Source: Phycisphaeraceae bacterium (lineage in GTDB: Bacteria; Planctomycetota; Phycisphaerae; Phycisphaerales; UBA1924). Taken from it: a stretch of DNA of 64,000 nucleotides. The notes under the pieces are model-generated. The model searched no databases and was not told the origin of the DNA. It saw only the letters and a list, made by a program, of their open reading frames with translations. Positions 6,613-59,534 of this stretch are shown here, piece by piece. Position 1 is the stretch's first letter; each line of letters opens with the position of its first letter. The stretch covers positions 124,001 to 188,000 of the forward strand of contig JAHBXB010000001.1 in assembly GCA_019636655.1 (NCBI GenBank), written 5' to 3'. The position numbers and the translations under genes are program-made.

Positions 6613-8040
6613 GTGATCTACGCCCTCCTCGGCGCCCTCATCATCGGCCTCGCCCTCGGCCTCCTCGGCTCCGGCGGCGGCATCCTCACCGTCCCCATAC
6701 TCGTCTACCTCGCCGGCCACGAACGCCACACCGCCACCGCTGAGTCCCTCGCGATCGTCGGCCTCATCAGCCTCATTTCCGCCGCCCTCCTCGCCCGCGC
6801 CGGCCGGGTGGACCTCCGCCGCGCCGCCGTCTTCGGCATCCCCGGCATGGCCGGCGCTGCGCTCGGCGGCTGGCTCGGCGGCCTCGTCCCCGGCCCGGCC
6901 AAGCTCGCCCTCCTCGCCGTCATCATGCTCGCCGCCGCCGCGATGATGGCCCGCCGCTCGCCCCCAACACCCCGCTCTCCCGGCCAGATCCGCTACCTCG
7001 CCGTCGCCACCCAGGGCCTCCTCGTCGGCGCCGTCACCGGGCTCGTCGGCGTCGGCGGCGGCTTCCTCATCGTCCCAGCACTCGTCCTCCTCGGCGGCGT
7101 CGAGATGCACATCGCCATCGGCACCAGCCTCGCCATCATCACCCTCAACTCCGCGGCGGGCCTCGTCTCCAACCTCCGCGCCCTCGACGCCCGCGGCCTC
7201 CACGTCGACTGCCCCACCATCGCCCTCTTCGCCGCCATCGGCATCGGCGGCAGCCTCGTCGGCGCCTCCCTCGGCGCCCGACTCGACCAGCGACGCCTCC
7301 GCCAGATCTTTTCGGGCTTCCTTCTCCTCCTCGCCGTGTTTATCCTTATCAAGGAGGGCCCGGGCGTCGTCCGCTCATTCCGCCCGCCCGAGCCCCCCGA
7401 AGCGTCCGCGGCCGCACACTTCACCCGCAGCCCCGCCCGCAGCGTCGGGGCCCAACAGGAGGGACACCCCATGACCACCCTCGCCTCCCCCGCGACCTCA
7501 ACCCAGCAGCACGTGCATCAGATCGAACCGCGAGATCTCGATTCCCTCCTCCGCGCCGGCCGCGCCGTCATCATCGACGTCCGCGAGCCCGTCGAGCACC
7601 GCACCGAGCACATCGCCGGCTCCATCTCGCTCCCCCTCTCCTCCTTCGATCCCACCCGCGTCCCCGCCGCCGGCGACAAGACCATCGTCCTCCACTGCCG
7701 CTCCGGCAAGCGATCCGCCACCGCGGCGGAAAAACTCCTCGCCGCCGGTCGCGAATCCGTCACCTGCCTCACCGGCGGTCTCGAAGCCTGGAAAGCCGCC
7801 GGACTCCCCATCGAGAAGGACGCATCCGCACCGCGCCTCGATCTGCAGCGCCAGACCCAGATCACCATCGGGTCTTTCGTGCTGCTCTGGGTTGCCCTCG
7901 GCGCCTTCGTTTCCCCTTGGTTCCTCGCCCTCGCGGCCTTCATGGGCGCCGGTCTGGTCGTTGCCGGCGCCACAGGCACCTGCGGCATGGCCATGCTCAT
8001 CGCCAAGATGCCGTGGAACCGCGCCGCTCCGCAGAGCTGA
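6613..8040 (+). CDS. TauE/SafE permease fused to rhodanese-DUF2892 (YgaP-like)
   Basis: One open frame of 475 residues holds two normally separate proteins. Residues 1 to about 255 are a TauE/SafE-family anion permease with repeated hydrophobic helices and two glycine-rich motifs ([13 protein letters not shown] and [13 protein letters not shown]). Residues about 287-475 match YgaP: a rhodanese domain with catalytic Cys362 in HCRSGKRSA, then a DUF2892 two-helix membrane tail. No stop codon separates them, but a perfect ribosome site and ATG lie at the junction. Expected role: export of sulfite or another sulfur oxyanion coupled to sulfane-sulfur transfer at the membrane. The GTG start has no strong ribosome site. 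Confidence 0.85.
7457..7473 (+). promoter_or_regulatory. Internal Shine-Dalgarno and ATG for a separate YgaP-like protein
   Basis: AGGAGGG at 7457-7463 lies seven bases before ATG 7471, in frame with the long fusion. Translation from here would give a 189-residue rhodanese-DUF2892 protein with catalytic Cys76. This is the strongest ribosome-binding match in the region and falls exactly at the domain boundary. Either a free YgaP-like product is made alongside the fusion, or the two genes were joined recently by loss of the permease stop codon (or by a sequence error). Confidence 0.7.
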
Positions 8041-8173
8041 TCGCACGATTCTCATGCCGATACGTAGCGCATCGCCCGGATTCTGATCACGGTGGTTGCA
8101 GTCTACAACTCTGCAGAGCATCCGCCGCGGTGGTGTCAACATATGGCGCAACAAGGATTTGTGTTGCGATATC

Positions 8174-8199
8174 ACCCATACGACCGCAGGGGTATGGGT
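8174..8199. repeat. 8-bp perfect inverted repeat upstream of the acquired gene
   Basis: ACCCATAC at 8174-8181 is the exact complement of 8192-8199, with a 10-base spacer. It lies in the 218-base AT-richer gap (8041-8258) ahead of the methyltransferase-like gene. It could be an operator or an RNA hairpin; there is no T-run to make it a terminator. No other clear signal was seen in this gap. Confidence 0.4.
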
Positions 8200-8258
8200 C
8201 TCAAGAAGTGAAGACGCGATCGGACGGTCAAGCATCAGTTTTGGTACACTCCAGCCCC

Positions 8259-10280
8259 ATGACGAGTACCAAGGTTGACGATCGTGGCGAAAAGGCGTCA
8301 GGCACGCCGTACGCAAAACACGTGTTCCGTATGATTGCTATTGCAATCGGTGCGGGGCTTATCCACTTCGGTGTTGAAAGAGCCATGCACGCCCACTCAA
8401 TGACGGAATGGTTGACCAATCTCTGGTCGGCTCCGCGTGAAGAGTGGTGGAGGGGGCTTCAGGCAGGCATCGTCGCATCGTTGCTGCTTGAATCAGCCAT
8501 AGTACTCGTCGATGTCGCAAGGCGGGTAGGCATGCTCCTTAGTGCTACTGGACGGCTCCAGGATGAGTTTGACGCCCCCAACCGGGTAAAGCTGCCTGAC
8601 GTCGAGGATGCCGATACGAGACGGCGGGTCATGCACATCGCGACCAGTATTCGGGAAACACTTGAACTGATAGCACAGCGGACTCCAGCCGAAACTCGAC
8701 AGCAGTATGCTCGCTGCTACGACGCAGCGATTTCAGAAGTCAACGCTGGCATTGCTAGTAAGCATATCCGCTTGCAGGTGGAAGGAGTTTCGGCACCTCG
8801 GATTCTAGATCTAATCCGAACAACAGCGGCCCATGCCGACCGTGTTGTGGCGACGTGCTTCACGAAGATGGACGACTTCTGGTGCACCAAGACGGGACTG
8901 GATTATCTCGAACTCAACTTGTCGCTGCTTAGGCCTGATCCGGAATACAATCGAAATCAGTCGCTTCAAATGGAGCGCATTTTTGGAGTCATGGAGAAAG
9001 ATGGGTATCGAGACAACATAAAGCTTCGTGAAGTCATACGTCTTCTTCGCAGCAATGGATGCGAATGCCATGTTCGGTCTCCGCTGACTGTTTCTGGAAG
9101 CTCGCCGCGAGACTTGTTCATTCTGCTGCGCAAGGACGCTCCATTGATGGGTATCGAGTGGGATGTGGATCGTCACGGCACTGCTCTCGGAGTTACGGTT
9201 CAGTTGCCCGGCGGTGCGCTCGACGAGCTCTACGCTGCATACCGGAAGCTGCGGGCTGCGCCATCAAGTGGCGACCTGCCCGAGGGGCTCCATGAACTGC
9301 GCGGTGTGGCCGCATCAAAGGCTTATCTCGAGCGACTAAATGAGACGTATATTCGTACGAATAGCCTTCAATACCTACGTAATGCACCGAGATCTCCTGA
9401 CGGCATCGCTGAGTATTGGAGAAAGCTGGAAGGAACAATAGTAAGGCCGAGCACCAAGACCATGGCATGGATGTCGGACCAGATTGCGTCGAAGATGAAG
9501 ACGAACGGAAGGATTGAGCGGATCTGTATTCTCGGCTGCACGCCGGAAGTTCGGGAACTCGTGGCAACCACAAAGACTCTGGATCGCGTCAGAGTTGAGC
9601 TGGTTGATCTGTCGCAGGCGATGTACGATGGAATGAATGCTTTTATTCGTCGATCGCCTCATCTCGATGATCGCGCACGAGAGCGATGCGCCGCGCAGGT
9701 GCTACTGCCAATTAACTGGTTGGGATTGGATTTGCTTAGAAAGGCGCAGTTTGATCTTGTTCTTGGAGTGGATGTGCTCAATATGCTGCCACGAGATGGC
9801 ATGAAGATGCTGCTCGATCGTATCAGTCAAGTGCTCAGGCCCGGTGGGAGTGCTCTGCTCCAGATGGTGTGCCACTCGCCTGAGCGTATGAATGGGCATT
9901 CTCAGATGGTCGATCGGATGCCACAGCGAGCAACGAGGCGCTTGGCAAAGGCCGCTAGTCATAATCATCACGATCTCTTTGTCGACATCGCGTTTGATCT
10001 CTGCAATGCTGCGGAGGACCTCCCCAAGCTGAATCTTCCTGAGGCGTATGACTGGGTAATGAGCCATGCCTCAGATGCGGCGCATGGATCCTTTGTGGAT
10101 ACGGTACGGTCTACGTATGCCCATTGTCACAGCGTGCTTTCGTTGGTCAGCCCTTCAGAGTTGTTTGCTGATGGGATGCGGCCAAGGGACTTGCATCCCA
10201 TTGGCAATGTGCAGGACGCGTACGATGGCAAGCTGCGGTTCACCGGCGACATGCACATGTTCCGCTTTGACAAGCAATAG
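8259..10280 (+). CDS. Membrane-anchored protein with C-terminal class I SAM methyltransferase-like domain
   Basis: A 673-residue protein unlike its neighbours in composition: A/T-rich wobble positions, longer AT runs and no C-bias. Hydrophobic stretches near residues 22-40 and 66-88 suggest two N-terminal membrane helices. The middle (about 170-300) is an unrecognised mixed alpha/beta domain. Residues about 410-560 look like a Rossmann methyltransferase: ICILGCTPEVREL (motif I position), VELVDLSQAM (acidic end of strand 2), and FDLVLGVDVLNMLPRDGM followed by LRPGGSALLQ. Start chosen at ATG 8259; the open frame extends upstream to 7917 but there overlaps the rhodanese gene. It is probably horizontally acquired. 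The substrate is unknown. Confidence 0.72.
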   Translation: MTSTKVDDRGEKASGTPYAKHVFRMIAIAIGAGLIHFGVERAMHAHSMTEWLTNLWSAPREEWWRGLQAGIVASLLLESAIVLVDVARRVGMLLSATGRLQDEFDAPNRVKLPDVEDADTRRRVMHIATSIRETLELIAQRTPAETRQQYARCYDAAISEVNAGIASKHIRLQVEGVSAPRILDLIRTTAAHADRVVATCFTKMDDFWCTKTGLDYLELNLSLLRPDPEYNRNQSLQMERIFGVMEKDGYRDNIKLREVIRLLRSNGCECHVRSPLTVSGSSPRDLFILLRKDAPLMGIEWDVDRHGTALGVTVQLPGGALDELYAAYRKLRAAPSSGDLPEGLHELRGVAASKAYLERLNETYIRTNSLQYLRNAPRSPDGIAEYWRKLEGTIVRPSTKTMAWMSDQIASKMKTNGRIERICILGCTPEVRELVATTKTLDRVRVELVDLSQAMYDGMNAFIRRSPHLDDRARERCAAQVLLPINWLGLDLLRKAQFDLVLGVDVLNMLPRDGMKMLLDRISQVLRPGGSALLQMVCHSPERMNGHSQMVDRMPQRATRRLAKAASHNHHDLFVDIAFDLCNAAEDLPKLNLPEAYDWVMSHASDAAHGSFVDTVRSTYAHCHSVLSLVSPSELFADGMRPRDLHPIGNVQDAYDGKLRFTGDMHMFRFDKQ

Positions 10281-10328
10281 CAATAGAGTCCCAGAACAAT
10301 GGCTGGGTTCGGCGGTACCTATGGCACC

Positions 10329-11483
10329 CTACTGCAGTGCGGAGTCGAGATCTTGGATAAGATCTTTCGCGTCTTCAATGCCCACGCTAAGACGGACGAG
10401 GTCGTCGGTGATGCCAAGCTGGTGCCGATGAGCTGGTGGGACGGAGGCGTGTGTCATGATCGCGGGGTGCTCAATCAGAGATTCCACTCCGCCCAGCGAT
10501 TCGGCGAGCGAAAAGAGACGCACTTGTTCGAGCATCGAAGTCGCGCCGGCAACTCCGCCGTCGATGCGGCAACTGATGATGGCGCCATAGCCCCTCATCT
10601 GCTCAGTCGCCAAGGCGTGCTGTGGGTGTGCCTTGAGCCCGGGGAAAAACACTTCGAGCACACGTGTATGGGCTGACAGAAAATCAACAACCTGTAGTGC
10701 GTTGGCACAGTGACGATCCATCCGCACGTGCAGTGTCTTGGTTGATCGCAACAGCATAAAGCAGTCCGTTGGCCCCGGCACCGCACCCGCCGCGTTCTGC
10801 ACGAACCGCAGCCGCTCCGCCAGTTCATCGTTGCTCGTCACCAGCACCCCGCCGATCACGTCGCTGTGCCCGCCGATGTACTTGGTCGACGAGTGCATCA
10901 CCACATCCGCCCCCAGCGCCAGGGGGTTCTGTAGGTACGGTGTAGCGAAGGTGTTGTCCACCACGCTCACCGCTCCGCGCGCCCTCGCCATCGTCGTCAC
11001 CGCGCCGATGTCGATCACCTTCAGCATCGGGTTCGTCGGCGTCTCGATCCACACCAGCCGCGTCTTCGGCGTGAACGCCCCCTCAGTCGCCTTCAGGTCT
11101 GTCATGTCCACCCGCGTCACAGTCAGGCCCAGTTGCTTGAACACCTTGTCGATGAGCCGGAACGTCCCCCCGTACACATCGTCGCACAGCACGATGTGAT
11201 CCCCCGAACTCAGCGTGTGCAGCACGCAGTCAATCGCTGCGAGCCCTGAGGAGAAGCACAGCCCGTGTTTCCCGCCCTCAAGCGAAGCAAGGTTGTCCTC
11301 CAGCGCCGTCCTCGTCGGATTCTTCGACCGTGAATAGTCGTAACCGTCCTTAAAAACGCCCGGAGACTCTTGGACGTACGTCGAAGTCTGGTAGATCGGC
11401 GTCATGATCGCGCCAGTCGTCGGATCCGGCGACTGCCCCGCGTGGATCGCCCTCGTGCCAAACCCCTGTGCGCTGTCGTGCAT
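10329..11483 (-). CDS. Cystathionine gamma-synthase/gamma-lyase family PLP enzyme (paralog 1)
   Basis: A 384-residue Cys/Met-metabolism PLP enzyme. The PLP lysine is Lys201 in MHSSTKYIGGHSD. The pocket motifs are YSRSKNPTR, SSGLAAI, DDVYGGT and VVDNTFATP. Glu334 in GGVESLIEHP is the residue typical of gamma-synthases and gamma-lyases. It therefore probably forms or cleaves cystathionine in methionine/cysteine interconversion. The ATG at 11483 is preceded by AGGAGCGAGCC, preferred over an unsupported start at 11570. The last third (about 10329-10700) has weaker C/G wobble bias than the first part and borders the AT-rich segment. Confidence 0.88.
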   Translation of the reverse strand: MHDSAQGFGTRAIHAGQSPDPTTGAIMTPIYQTSTYVQESPGVFKDGYDYSRSKNPTRTALEDNLASLEGGKHGLCFSSGLAAIDCVLHTLSSGDHIVLCDDVYGGTFRLIDKVFKQLGLTVTRVDMTDLKATEGAFTPKTRLVWIETPTNPMLKVIDIGAVTTMARARGAVSVVDNTFATPYLQNPLALGADVVMHSSTKYIGGHSDVIGGVLVTSNDELAERLRFVQNAAGAVPGPTDCFMLLRSTKTLHVRMDRHCANALQVVDFLSAHTRVLEVFFPGLKAHPQHALATEQMRGYGAIISCRIDGGVAGATSMLEQVRLFSLAESLGGVESLIEHPAIMTHASVPPAHRHQLGITDDLVRLSVGIEDAKDLIQDLDSALQ

Positions 11484-57919: not shown

Positions 57920-58065
57920 GGCAGGACTCCTGGTTCGTGTTTGATACCCGGCTTCGGGTGGTTGACCGAGCCGGCGGTTGAATCGTGTCGTGCGAGTATA
58001 TCGTGCAAAGGTGCGGCTATCGTGGCGAGCAGAACTGGTAGCGGCATCGTGCGTAAAGAAGTCCC

Positions 58066-58510
58066 CTATTTTAGTGATCTGGCCGCGAGACGAGCGCATG
58101 ATTCCTCGCGATCCATCCGAGTGAGTGTGGCATCGGCGTCGTCGGTCCAGACGAAGAGCTTGGCGTCGTCGTTGTGGACAGCGAGGTAATCGAGTGCGGT
58201 GGCGATGCTGGGGAATACCCCGCGGCGGAGCTGCTTTTGCGTCAGGCTGGCGAAAGCGTGTTCGATCTGGTTGTGCCAGTTGGAGTTGGTTGGGGGGATG
58301 CAGTGGTATTCGGGATGACACGTCAGCCGCCGCCAGCGGCGGCCTGTGTGAGGCGTCGCTGCCCAGCACGATGTGCATCGCCGTGTTCAGGGTTCGAACG
58401 TCTTCACCACCGCGCCGATGGAGTTGAGGAATCCGACGAACTCCTGGCGCCGATGGTTGCGATGGCATTCGCCGATTACCACACCGGTCTTGGAAGACTC
58501 TCTTTCAGAC
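58066..58510 (-). pseudogene. IS630-family transposase remnant, multiply frameshifted
   Basis: Three pieces of an IS630-type DDE transposase in different minus frames. The first is GVVIGECHRNHRRQEFVGFL with NSIGAVVKTFEP and a stop (about 58510-58390); the second is NTAMHIVLGSDASHR (about 58388-58330). The third is CHPEYHCIPPTNSNWHNQIE, then LTQKQLRRGVFPSIATALDY and KLFVWTDDAD, ending at 58066. The catalytic Glu region is kept, but the usual LDN motif of the second Asp is altered to LGSD. The gene is dead. I found no terminal inverted repeats. Confidence 0.75.
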
Positions 58511-58520
58511 GCTCCGTCGA

Positions 58521-58636
58521 AACGCGGTGCAGGATCACCGCGAGATACTCAAGATCCGTGGGCGGTAACAGCGATCACCGGACACTCGGAGGAAGTAGAA
58601 CCCAAGCACTACCTCGGCTACGACAGGCTGACATGA
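58521..58636 (+). pseudogene. Tyrosine-recombinase C-terminal remnant
   Basis: The frame ending at the TGA at 58634-58636 reads VTAITGHSEEVEPKHYLGYD. It matches the end of phage-type integrases, where TGHS precedes the catalytic Tyr by about ten residues (here in KHY). Nothing upstream of about 58521 continues the enzyme, and the IS630 remnant begins there on the other strand. It is therefore a truncated tail, perhaps cut by the insertion sequence. Confidence 0.6.
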
Positions 58637-58758
58637 ATAGGGCCACCGGCGCAGCGAAACACAATGGGGTGGAACTGGTTGTTGCGATATGGAAGTCGCT
58701 GCTAGCCGCGACCGTGGAGGAGATTCTCGCTGTTGTGTGCAAGCAAGCCGCCGGTTGA
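58633..58758 (+). CDS. Small ORF coupled to the integrase tail
   Basis: A 41-residue frame from ATG 58633, overlapping the integrase-tail stop (ATGA). The product contains NGVELVVAIWKSLLAATVEE and is partly amphipathic. The four-base overlap suggests it was translated together with the former integrase. No family is recognised, and it may be non-functional now that the integrase is broken. Confidence 0.35.
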   Translation: MNRATGAAKHNGVELVVAIWKSLLAATVEEILAVVCKQAAG

Positions 58759-58764
58759 TGTTGG

Positions 58765-59406
58765 TCACGCTCCGATGCGGCGAAGCCGGTCGATGGTGGG
58801 CGTGATTTCCGGGTCTCTGAGTTCCCGCGGTATCGACGCGAAATAGTCTCCGTCGATTTCGACGTCGGTATTTGCTCCGTGGTCTGGCGCGGCGTCCAAG
58901 AACATTTTTCCGTCTTCAAAGTCGCGGTCCCACAAGACCTGATCGCTCAGATCTTCGATCGCCCAAGTCCACTCTTCAAGATCGTCGTCGTTATCGGCAA
59001 GGGCTTTAAGGCCACGCTCGTAGCACCCAGCTCGAATAATGCTCCGGATATCAAAGCTGTCGGCCGCATCAAGTTCGAACTCGACGAGGGCCAGCAGTTG
59101 CTTGTAAACCGCGTAGATAGCCGCCTCGCTCGCGGCGGTGTGGGCCGGAGTCGACACAGAAGAGGGGTCGAGAAGCGCACCCGCGATATCTTCAAGCAAT
59201 GCCAATCGCTGGCCGTAGGAAAGCGAATCGAACACCTCCACGCTGCTCTCGTGGTCGTCGCCCCACTCAGCCAACTCCTCGACGAGAGCACTCAACCCGG
59301 CCTTGAAAGCTCGGGCTTCCGCACCCTTCAGAACGCGATTTCCTTGAGGGGTTCGCCACATGGCCGCTCGCTCAAAGCGGAACTGCCGCAACCCGGCTTC
59401 GGCCAT
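58765..59406 (-). CDS. Hypothetical acidic protein
   Basis: An approximately 213-residue acidic helical protein of no recognised family (LVEELAEWGDDHESSVEVFD, YKQLLALVEFELDAADSFDI, LADNDDDLEEWTWAIEDL). ATG 59406 is preferred because GAGGCGG lies just before it. An ATG at 59454 would place the start only eight bases from the tRNA gene. Its wobble bias is weaker than in core genes, and it adjoins mobile-element remains, so it may have arrived by transfer. Confidence 0.6.
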   Translation of the reverse strand: MAEAGLRQFRFERAAMWRTPQGNRVLKGAEARAFKAGLSALVEELAEWGDDHESSVEVFDSLSYGQRLALLEDIAGALLDPSSVSTPAHTAASEAAIYAVYKQLLALVEFELDAADSFDIRSIIRAGCYERGLKALADNDDDLEEWTWAIEDLSDQVLWDRDFEDGKMFLDAAPDHGANTDVEIDGDYFASIPRELRDPEITPTIDRLRRIGA

Positions 59407-59461
59407 CCGCCTCAAATAGGCCGAAGGTGAATAGAACCGCAAACGCAGATTCAAATCGAAG

Positions 59462-59534
<73 letters not shown>

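What the first reader, a model, noticed from the sequence alone, without database searches (positions are those of the whole stretch)
8041..10328. Acquired AT-richer segment with a membrane-tethered methyltransferase-like protein of novel architecture
Base composition and codon use change sharply at 8041 and return after the gene. The protein combines two membrane helices, an unrecognised middle domain and a methyltransferase-like C-terminus. The combination is unfamiliar to me and could belong to a defence, signalling or surface-modification role.
Basis: partly seen in the sequence, partly recalled or inferred. Interest (0 to 1): 0.6.

Follow-up and report, generated by a model that had tools for sequence, protein, structure and literature searches.

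The report
Acquired membrane-anchored methyltransferase-like gene
A planctomycete-type genome carries one foreign-looking gene whose protein joins two membrane helices, a little-known middle domain and a methyltransferase-like end; it is probably a rare, horizontally acquired membrane-tethered enzyme of unknown target, and no defence role is shown.

Summary
The gene at 8259-10280 (673 codons; the AT-richer stretch starts at 8041) has GC 0.544, lower than 1,544 equal-sized windows in 424 kb of its genome, and the most deviant tetranucleotides. The protein has two predicted membrane helices (about 19-43, 64-88), a middle domain (about 175-334) and a class I methyltransferase-like C-terminus (Pfam E 2.3e-5, below cut-off). 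No full-length relative was found in 199 other relatives, phages or plasmids; scans of viral and genome contigs, which reach close relatives only, found none. Each half has one relative: the middle domain in a 359-aa two-helix protein without methyltransferase, in an AT-rich islet; the methyltransferase in a 335-aa protein on a contig with a phage terminase. The middle domain weakly resembles DUF6879-like proteins; membership is not shown. I read it as a laterally acquired, membrane-tethered methyltransferase with a sensor-like middle domain. Defence is possible, but libraries and neighbours do not support it. Structure models failed (pLDDT 35.7, 40.0). New combination of known kinds of parts.

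The parts
8041..8258 (+). AT-richer upstream gap (GC 0.55), 218 bases, after the stop of the TauE/rhodanese gene
   Evidence: no sigma-70-like promoter found in 7900-10500
8259..10280 (+). gene for the 673-residue protein (ATG start most likely; stop TAG at 10278-10280)
   Evidence: compositional outlier
8313..8387 (+). first predicted membrane helix, residues about 19-43
   Evidence: hydropathy
8448..8522 (+). second predicted membrane helix, residues about 64-88 (Arg-Arg at its end; inside-facing C-terminal part is inferred)
   Evidence: hydropathy; topology is inference
8523..8780 (+). linker, residues about 89-174, possibly helical
   Evidence: helices in a model of very low confidence; inference
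8781..9260 (+). middle domain, residues about 175-334, with the stretches RVVATCFT (195-202), RIFGV (240-244) and IEWDVD (299-304)
   Evidence: shared with P0002; no match in Pfam, NCBIfam or PDB sequences
9336..10277 (+). methyltransferase-like part and C-terminal extension, residues 360-673; motif-like stretches ILGCTPEVREL (424-434), VELVDLS (446-452), FDLVLGVDVLNMLP (498-511), VLRPGG (525-530)

Best explanation
A horizontally acquired single gene encoding a membrane-tethered methyltransferase. Two N-terminal helices anchor the protein; the rest faces the cytoplasm, where SAM is. The C-terminal class I fold transfers a methyl group to a substrate at or near the membrane, and the middle domain, which elsewhere sits on the same kind of anchor without the enzyme, acts as an exchangeable sensing or docking module that controls access or activity. 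Shown here: composition, order of parts, separate occurrence of both halves. Inferred: topology, SAM binding, catalysis, the sensing role and the membrane-near substrate.
For: Lowest GC and most deviant tetranucleotides of the 424 kb sampled. A 673-codon frame with a methyltransferase match of E 2.3e-5 and a 335-aa stand-alone relative over residues 396-545 (25% of 153 positions, E 3e-9 for that one comparison). The pair's profile retrieves solved SAM-dependent methyltransferases first (best E 0.00095, 9fcx; 7 of 9 hits are that series). The middle domain is shared with P0002, 359 aa, two hydrophobic N-terminal segments, no methyltransferase (26% of 161 positions, E 2e-9 for that one comparison). 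P0002 and its neighbour have the lowest GC (0.487, 0.492) of 8 genes measured on that contig, the others 0.565-0.615. Rare: in 199 other relatives only these two partial matches. The methyltransferase relative lies on a contig with a terminase large subunit (PHROG E 5.1e-35), consistent with mobile cargo.
Against: All four Pfam methyltransferase matches are under their cut-offs; with the window protein alone the best solved structure has E 0.48; motif I is not the usual GxGxG, so catalysis is unproven. Both structure models are unusable (mean pLDDT 35.7 and 40.0). No empty site; the repeat search showed no convincing border repeat. No partner gene seen; the neighbours are sulfur-metabolism genes. 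P0002's GC3 (0.552) is far from two near genes (0.885, 0.875) but not from two farther ones (0.575, 0.553), so its outlier status rests on total GC, and the islet also holds an ATP-grasp gene. The terminase is about 12 kb from P0003.
Confidence: 0.45

Rival explanations
1. A solitary membrane-anchored defence or abortive-infection factor: the middle domain senses an infection cue and the methyltransferase-like domain is the effector or a nucleic-acid modifier.
For: Acquired single gene; anchor-plus-domain layout of P0002 and of the L032 protein; methyltransferase relative on a contig with a terminase; weak PADLOC hit mad2, E 0.0086.
Against: The mad2 hit is weak and covers only the generic methyltransferase stretch (444-553); P0002, P0003 and the three further proteins gave no PADLOC hit; the flanking genes that were scanned are sulfur-metabolism genes.
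Confidence: 0.2
2. A biosynthetic or lipid-modifying methyltransferase held at the membrane, with the middle domain binding or presenting the substrate.
For: The weak NCBIfam matches include a corrinoid-associated and a RiPP-biosynthesis methyltransferase (E 0.019 and 0.056); an anchor fits a hydrophobic substrate (inference).
Against: Those matches are far under cut-off; the scanned neighbours are not biosynthetic partners but TauE/rhodanese, metallo-beta-lactamase/rhodanese, redoxin and Cys/Met-metabolism proteins.
Confidence: 0.2
3. A decaying or non-catalytic protein: an acquired gene whose methyltransferase fold only binds a ligand or no longer works.
For: Unusual motif I (sequence), sub-threshold Pfam scores, no promoter-like site found.
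Against: Frame of 673 codons without a stop; the motif I variant is shared by the stand-alone relative P0003, so it looks like a subfamily trait.
Confidence: 0.12

Closest known systems
P0002, 359-aa protein of Phycisphaeraceae bacterium bin3-gambi PHY-2 (WUAK01000042.1; L004/L008)
   Same: Two hydrophobic N-terminal segments, linker and the same middle domain (E 2e-9 pairwise); lies in an AT-rich islet
   Different: Ends after the domain; no methyltransferase
   Same: Region 396-545 with shared RPST, ILGxTxExR and NMxP residues (E 3e-9 pairwise)
   Different: No middle domain aligned and no Pfam methyltransferase match of its own; lies on a contig with a terminase
DUF6879 (PF21806) and proteins of plasmid-collection records L032 (Bradyrhizobium), L033 (Nonomuraea), L034 (Acaryochloris)
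   Same: Similar order of motifs (FW or WW, Y, RIF/RVF); L032 and L033 proteins have hydrophobic N-terminal stretches
   Different: PF21806 finds nothing in this genome at E 10; the link to the window protein is weak; L034 has no such hydrophobic stretch
Pfam Methyltransf_25 / Methyltransf_12 (PF13649, PF08242)
   Same: Match over residues 466-530, E about 2e-5
   Different: Below the curated cut-offs; membrane anchor and middle domain added

Membership tests
Class I SAM-dependent methyltransferase | Profile match above the curated cut-off | tested here: not met
   Best 25.4 bits against 27 (PF13649) and 25.4 against 30 (PF08242)
Class I SAM-dependent methyltransferase | Motif I glycine-rich loop, acidic residue after the second strand, post-motif region | tested here: inconclusive
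   ILGCTPE in place of GxGxG; VELVDLS, FDLVLGVDVLNMLP and VLRPGG at 446-530; the roles of the motifs are recalled; several positions are shared with P0003
Class I SAM-dependent methyltransferase | Rossmann-like fold | tested here: inconclusive
   Single-sequence model, mean pLDDT 35.7
Class I SAM-dependent methyltransferase | Methyl transfer from SAM | not testable with these tools
   needs the bench
DUF6879 (PF21806) | Match to the Pfam profile | tested here: not met
   No match at E 10 in the own genome; no Pfam family at E 10 for either of the 2 members of A2
DUF6879-like group of L032-L034 | Similarity beyond chance | tested here: inconclusive
   Profile of the three: P0002 E 0.004, window protein E 0.68, next unrelated ORF 0.96, among 3,414 sequences; shuffles reaching the score for the window domain: 2, 42 and 303 of 500; hhalign probability 5.5% and 0.3%
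Phospholipase D superfamily | HxK(x)4D catalytic motif | tested here: not met
   Not present in residues 175-334 as read
Phospholipase D superfamily | PLD fold | tested here: inconclusive
   Model with mean pLDDT 40.0; Foldseek 0 hits at E 0.001, human PLD2 only among hits without meaning
Known anti-phage defence systems | PADLOC profile match and system genes nearby | tested here: not met
   Only mad2, E 0.0086, over a generic methyltransferase stretch; the flanking genes were scanned with Pfam, not PADLOC

The most novel reading that the evidence does not exclude
A mobile family of two-helix membrane anchors carrying an exchangeable, non-catalytic sensor domain, here coupled to a methyltransferase effector: a one-gene, membrane-based immune or stress switch that acts by methylation.
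Probability: 0.1. Interest if true: 0.7.

Novelty: new variant of a known kind. Interest (0 to 1): 0.35.

Why it matters
The order anchor, middle domain, methyltransferase was found in no other genome searched, and its two halves occur separately in mobile-looking settings. If the middle domain is a sensor, this gene would show what it can control, since the enzyme is fused to it, and would give a handle on a domain for which Pfam, NCBIfam and PADLOC gave no name.

Tried and rejected
Defence by library: one weak generic hit, rejected as evidence. Whole-protein searches of plasmids and phages found nothing at E 0.01; at E up to 10 in phages only a weak match (E about 10) over tail-protein genes. 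The pattern-based scans of viral and genome contigs with the whole protein use exact 8-residue words and reach close relatives only; none found. Viral scans with P0002, A2, A4, A3 and P0005 found none. The genome-contig scan with A2 confirmed 1 of 119 pattern matches, and that one is P0002 itself, already known.

Weak genome hits in L006, L028, L029 and L030 were read in six frames and dropped: by my reading they lie in a tape-measure-like hydrophobic protein, a kinase/ATPase-like protein, a helicase/nuclease-like protein and beside an SMC-like gene. Weak plasmid hits at E 0.3-10 were not pursued except H1, which looks like a peptidase (my reading). Of the five hits, H22 (acetate-CoA ligase) was dropped and H18 not opened because H24/H25 later showed that it and H19 carry the same protein. 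Searches with the L033 and P0005 proteins in plasmids found only themselves.

Structure: both predictions failed, so the Foldseek list carries no weight. Empty-site test: in 61 genomes (many fragmented) I saw no pair of TauE/rhodanese and Cys/Met-enzyme matches closer than about 30 kb on one contig, except a rhodanese-only piece about 2 kb from the Cys/Met gene in G024 (read by eye).

Literature, all from listings and starts of abstracts; no paper was opened. No paper in the held library holds the word DUF6879. In four other searches nothing in the listed titles or abstract starts pointed to this architecture: 6 of 6, 8 of 19, 8 of 15 and 10 of 16 papers listed.

Circularity warning: L032-L034 were found with a 68-residue peptide that I composed from a recalled motif and from the window protein's own motif (E 0.9 to 4 for these), so their likeness to the window motif is partly selected for. 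Not part of that query are the DUF6879 matches of L032 and L033 (E 2.2e-4 and 0.07, both under the cut-off; L034 none) and the hydrophobic stretches.

Full report
What is there. The frame 8259-10280 (+) encodes 673 residues. It sits between a TauE/rhodanese gene ending at 8040 and a convergent Cys/Met-metabolism PLP-enzyme gene whose frame ends at 10329. Further upstream are a metallo-beta-lactamase/rhodanese protein and a redoxin-like protein: a sulfur-metabolism setting with which this gene has no visible link. It occurs once in its genome.

Is it foreign? GC is 0.544 against a sampled mean of 0.671; 0 of 1,544 windows of the same length in 424 kb are as low, and the tetranucleotide distance exceeds all 386 windows compared. 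The sample is the window and 18 stretches of one contig, about 12% of 3.66 Mb. GC3 alone is less striking: 13 of 277 ORFs are lower, one of them this gene's own longer frame. The whole protein matches 2 of 199 other relatives, each only in part (its tally of 3 of 200 counts the own genome). The N-terminal half (residues 1-387) matched 1 of 391 other genomes, spuriously. Profile searches with the two-member middle-domain alignment found no further credible member: 0 of 293, 0 of 300, 0 of 337 and 0 of 336 genomes other than the own one, after I dropped three matches as spurious. These samples overlap and are all of one phylum. In the 61-genome tables no other genome of the genus appears and the two flanking genes are not neighbours, so an empty site could not be shown. 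The repeat search showed no convincing border repeat, and the only tRNA of the window is far away at 59461.

The parts. Two hydrophobic segments lie at about 19-43 and 64-88. The methyltransferase-like region gives E about 2e-5 to two general methyltransferase families, under their cut-offs, and aligns with P0003 (25% over 153 positions, E 3e-9 for that comparison). P0003 itself has no Pfam methyltransferase match. A profile of both retrieves solved SAM-dependent methyltransferases first (best E 0.00095); the window protein alone gives E 0.48. The middle domain has no library match but aligns with P0002 (26% over 161 positions, E 2e-9 for that comparison).

Both relatives look mobile, with caveats. 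P0002's gene and its overlapping ATP-grasp neighbour have the lowest GC (0.487, 0.492) of 8 genes measured on that contig; the other six have 0.565-0.615. P0002's GC3 of 0.552 differs from two near genes (0.885, 0.875) but not from two farther ones (0.575, 0.553). P0003 shares a 19-kb stretch with a terminase large subunit about 12 kb away (PHROG E 5.1e-35; Pfam GpA_nuclease 5.1e-27); 5 of 7 proteins scanned from that stretch match a PHROG at E 0.001 or better, some of them only families that cellular proteins could match too.

What is the middle domain? Three proteins found with a composed motif peptide share an order of motifs around WW or FW, Y and RIF/RVF. Two of them have hydrophobic N-terminal stretches (L032 several, L033 one above the threshold of 1.6; L034 none) and weak DUF6879 matches. 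A profile of these three, run over 3,414 sequences including 600 shuffled controls, ranks P0002 first (E 0.004) and the window protein next (E 0.68) among non-members, the latter barely ahead of an unrelated ORF (0.96). Pairwise, the Nonomuraea domain against P0002 beats all 500 shuffles (z 6.2); the Acaryochloris and Bradyrhizobium domains against P0002 are reached by 2 and 38 of 500. Against the window domain the counts are Acaryochloris 2, Bradyrhizobium 42 and Nonomuraea 303 of 500, the last being plain chance. Profile comparison gives probabilities of only 5.5% (E 0.007) and 0.3% (E 0.18). PF21806 itself finds nothing in this genome at E 10. The link therefore runs through P0002 and is suggestive at best, with the circularity told in Tried and rejected. 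A phospholipase-D-like fold is a recalled lead; no HxK(x)4D motif is present and no usable model was made.

How it most likely works. The anchor holds a cytoplasmic enzyme at the membrane; the middle domain, which also exists on such an anchor alone, is best read as a sensing or docking module; the C-terminus methylates a membrane-near substrate. Only the architecture and the foreign character are shown; the rest is inference. Defence is a live rival, but the libraries and the scanned neighbours give it no support.

Novelty. The combination was found nowhere else in the collections searched, within the reach of those searches, but the parts are of known kinds or close to them; hence a new variant of a known kind, of moderate interest.

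Noticed in passing
window 58001-59534: A second GC dip (0.591 and 0.584 in the windows 58001-59000 and 58501-59500) next to the only tRNA gene found (tRNA-Lys, 59461-59534), possibly another acquired stretch.
   Followed up: no
window 6613-8040: TauE/SafE exporter, rhodanese and YgaP-like membrane domain in one frame; in G035 and G120 the same match contains a TGA, so they may be two genes there.
   Followed up: partly
L035 (G143:C4:2000-21011): Stand-alone relative of the methyltransferase part on a contig with a terminase, an ABC/GNAT protein and other PHROG-matching genes: possibly a phage or prophage stretch.
   Followed up: partly
L008 1360-3288: The P0002 gene and an overlapping ATP-grasp gene of equally low GC form an AT-rich islet.
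   Followed up: partly
L032 3425-4450, L033 3479-4381, L034 3461-4513: Uncharacterised proteins of a Bradyrhizobium plasmid, a Nonomuraea replicon and an Acaryochloris plasmid that share a motif order; the first two match DUF6879 weakly and have hydrophobic N-terminal stretches.
   Followed up: partly
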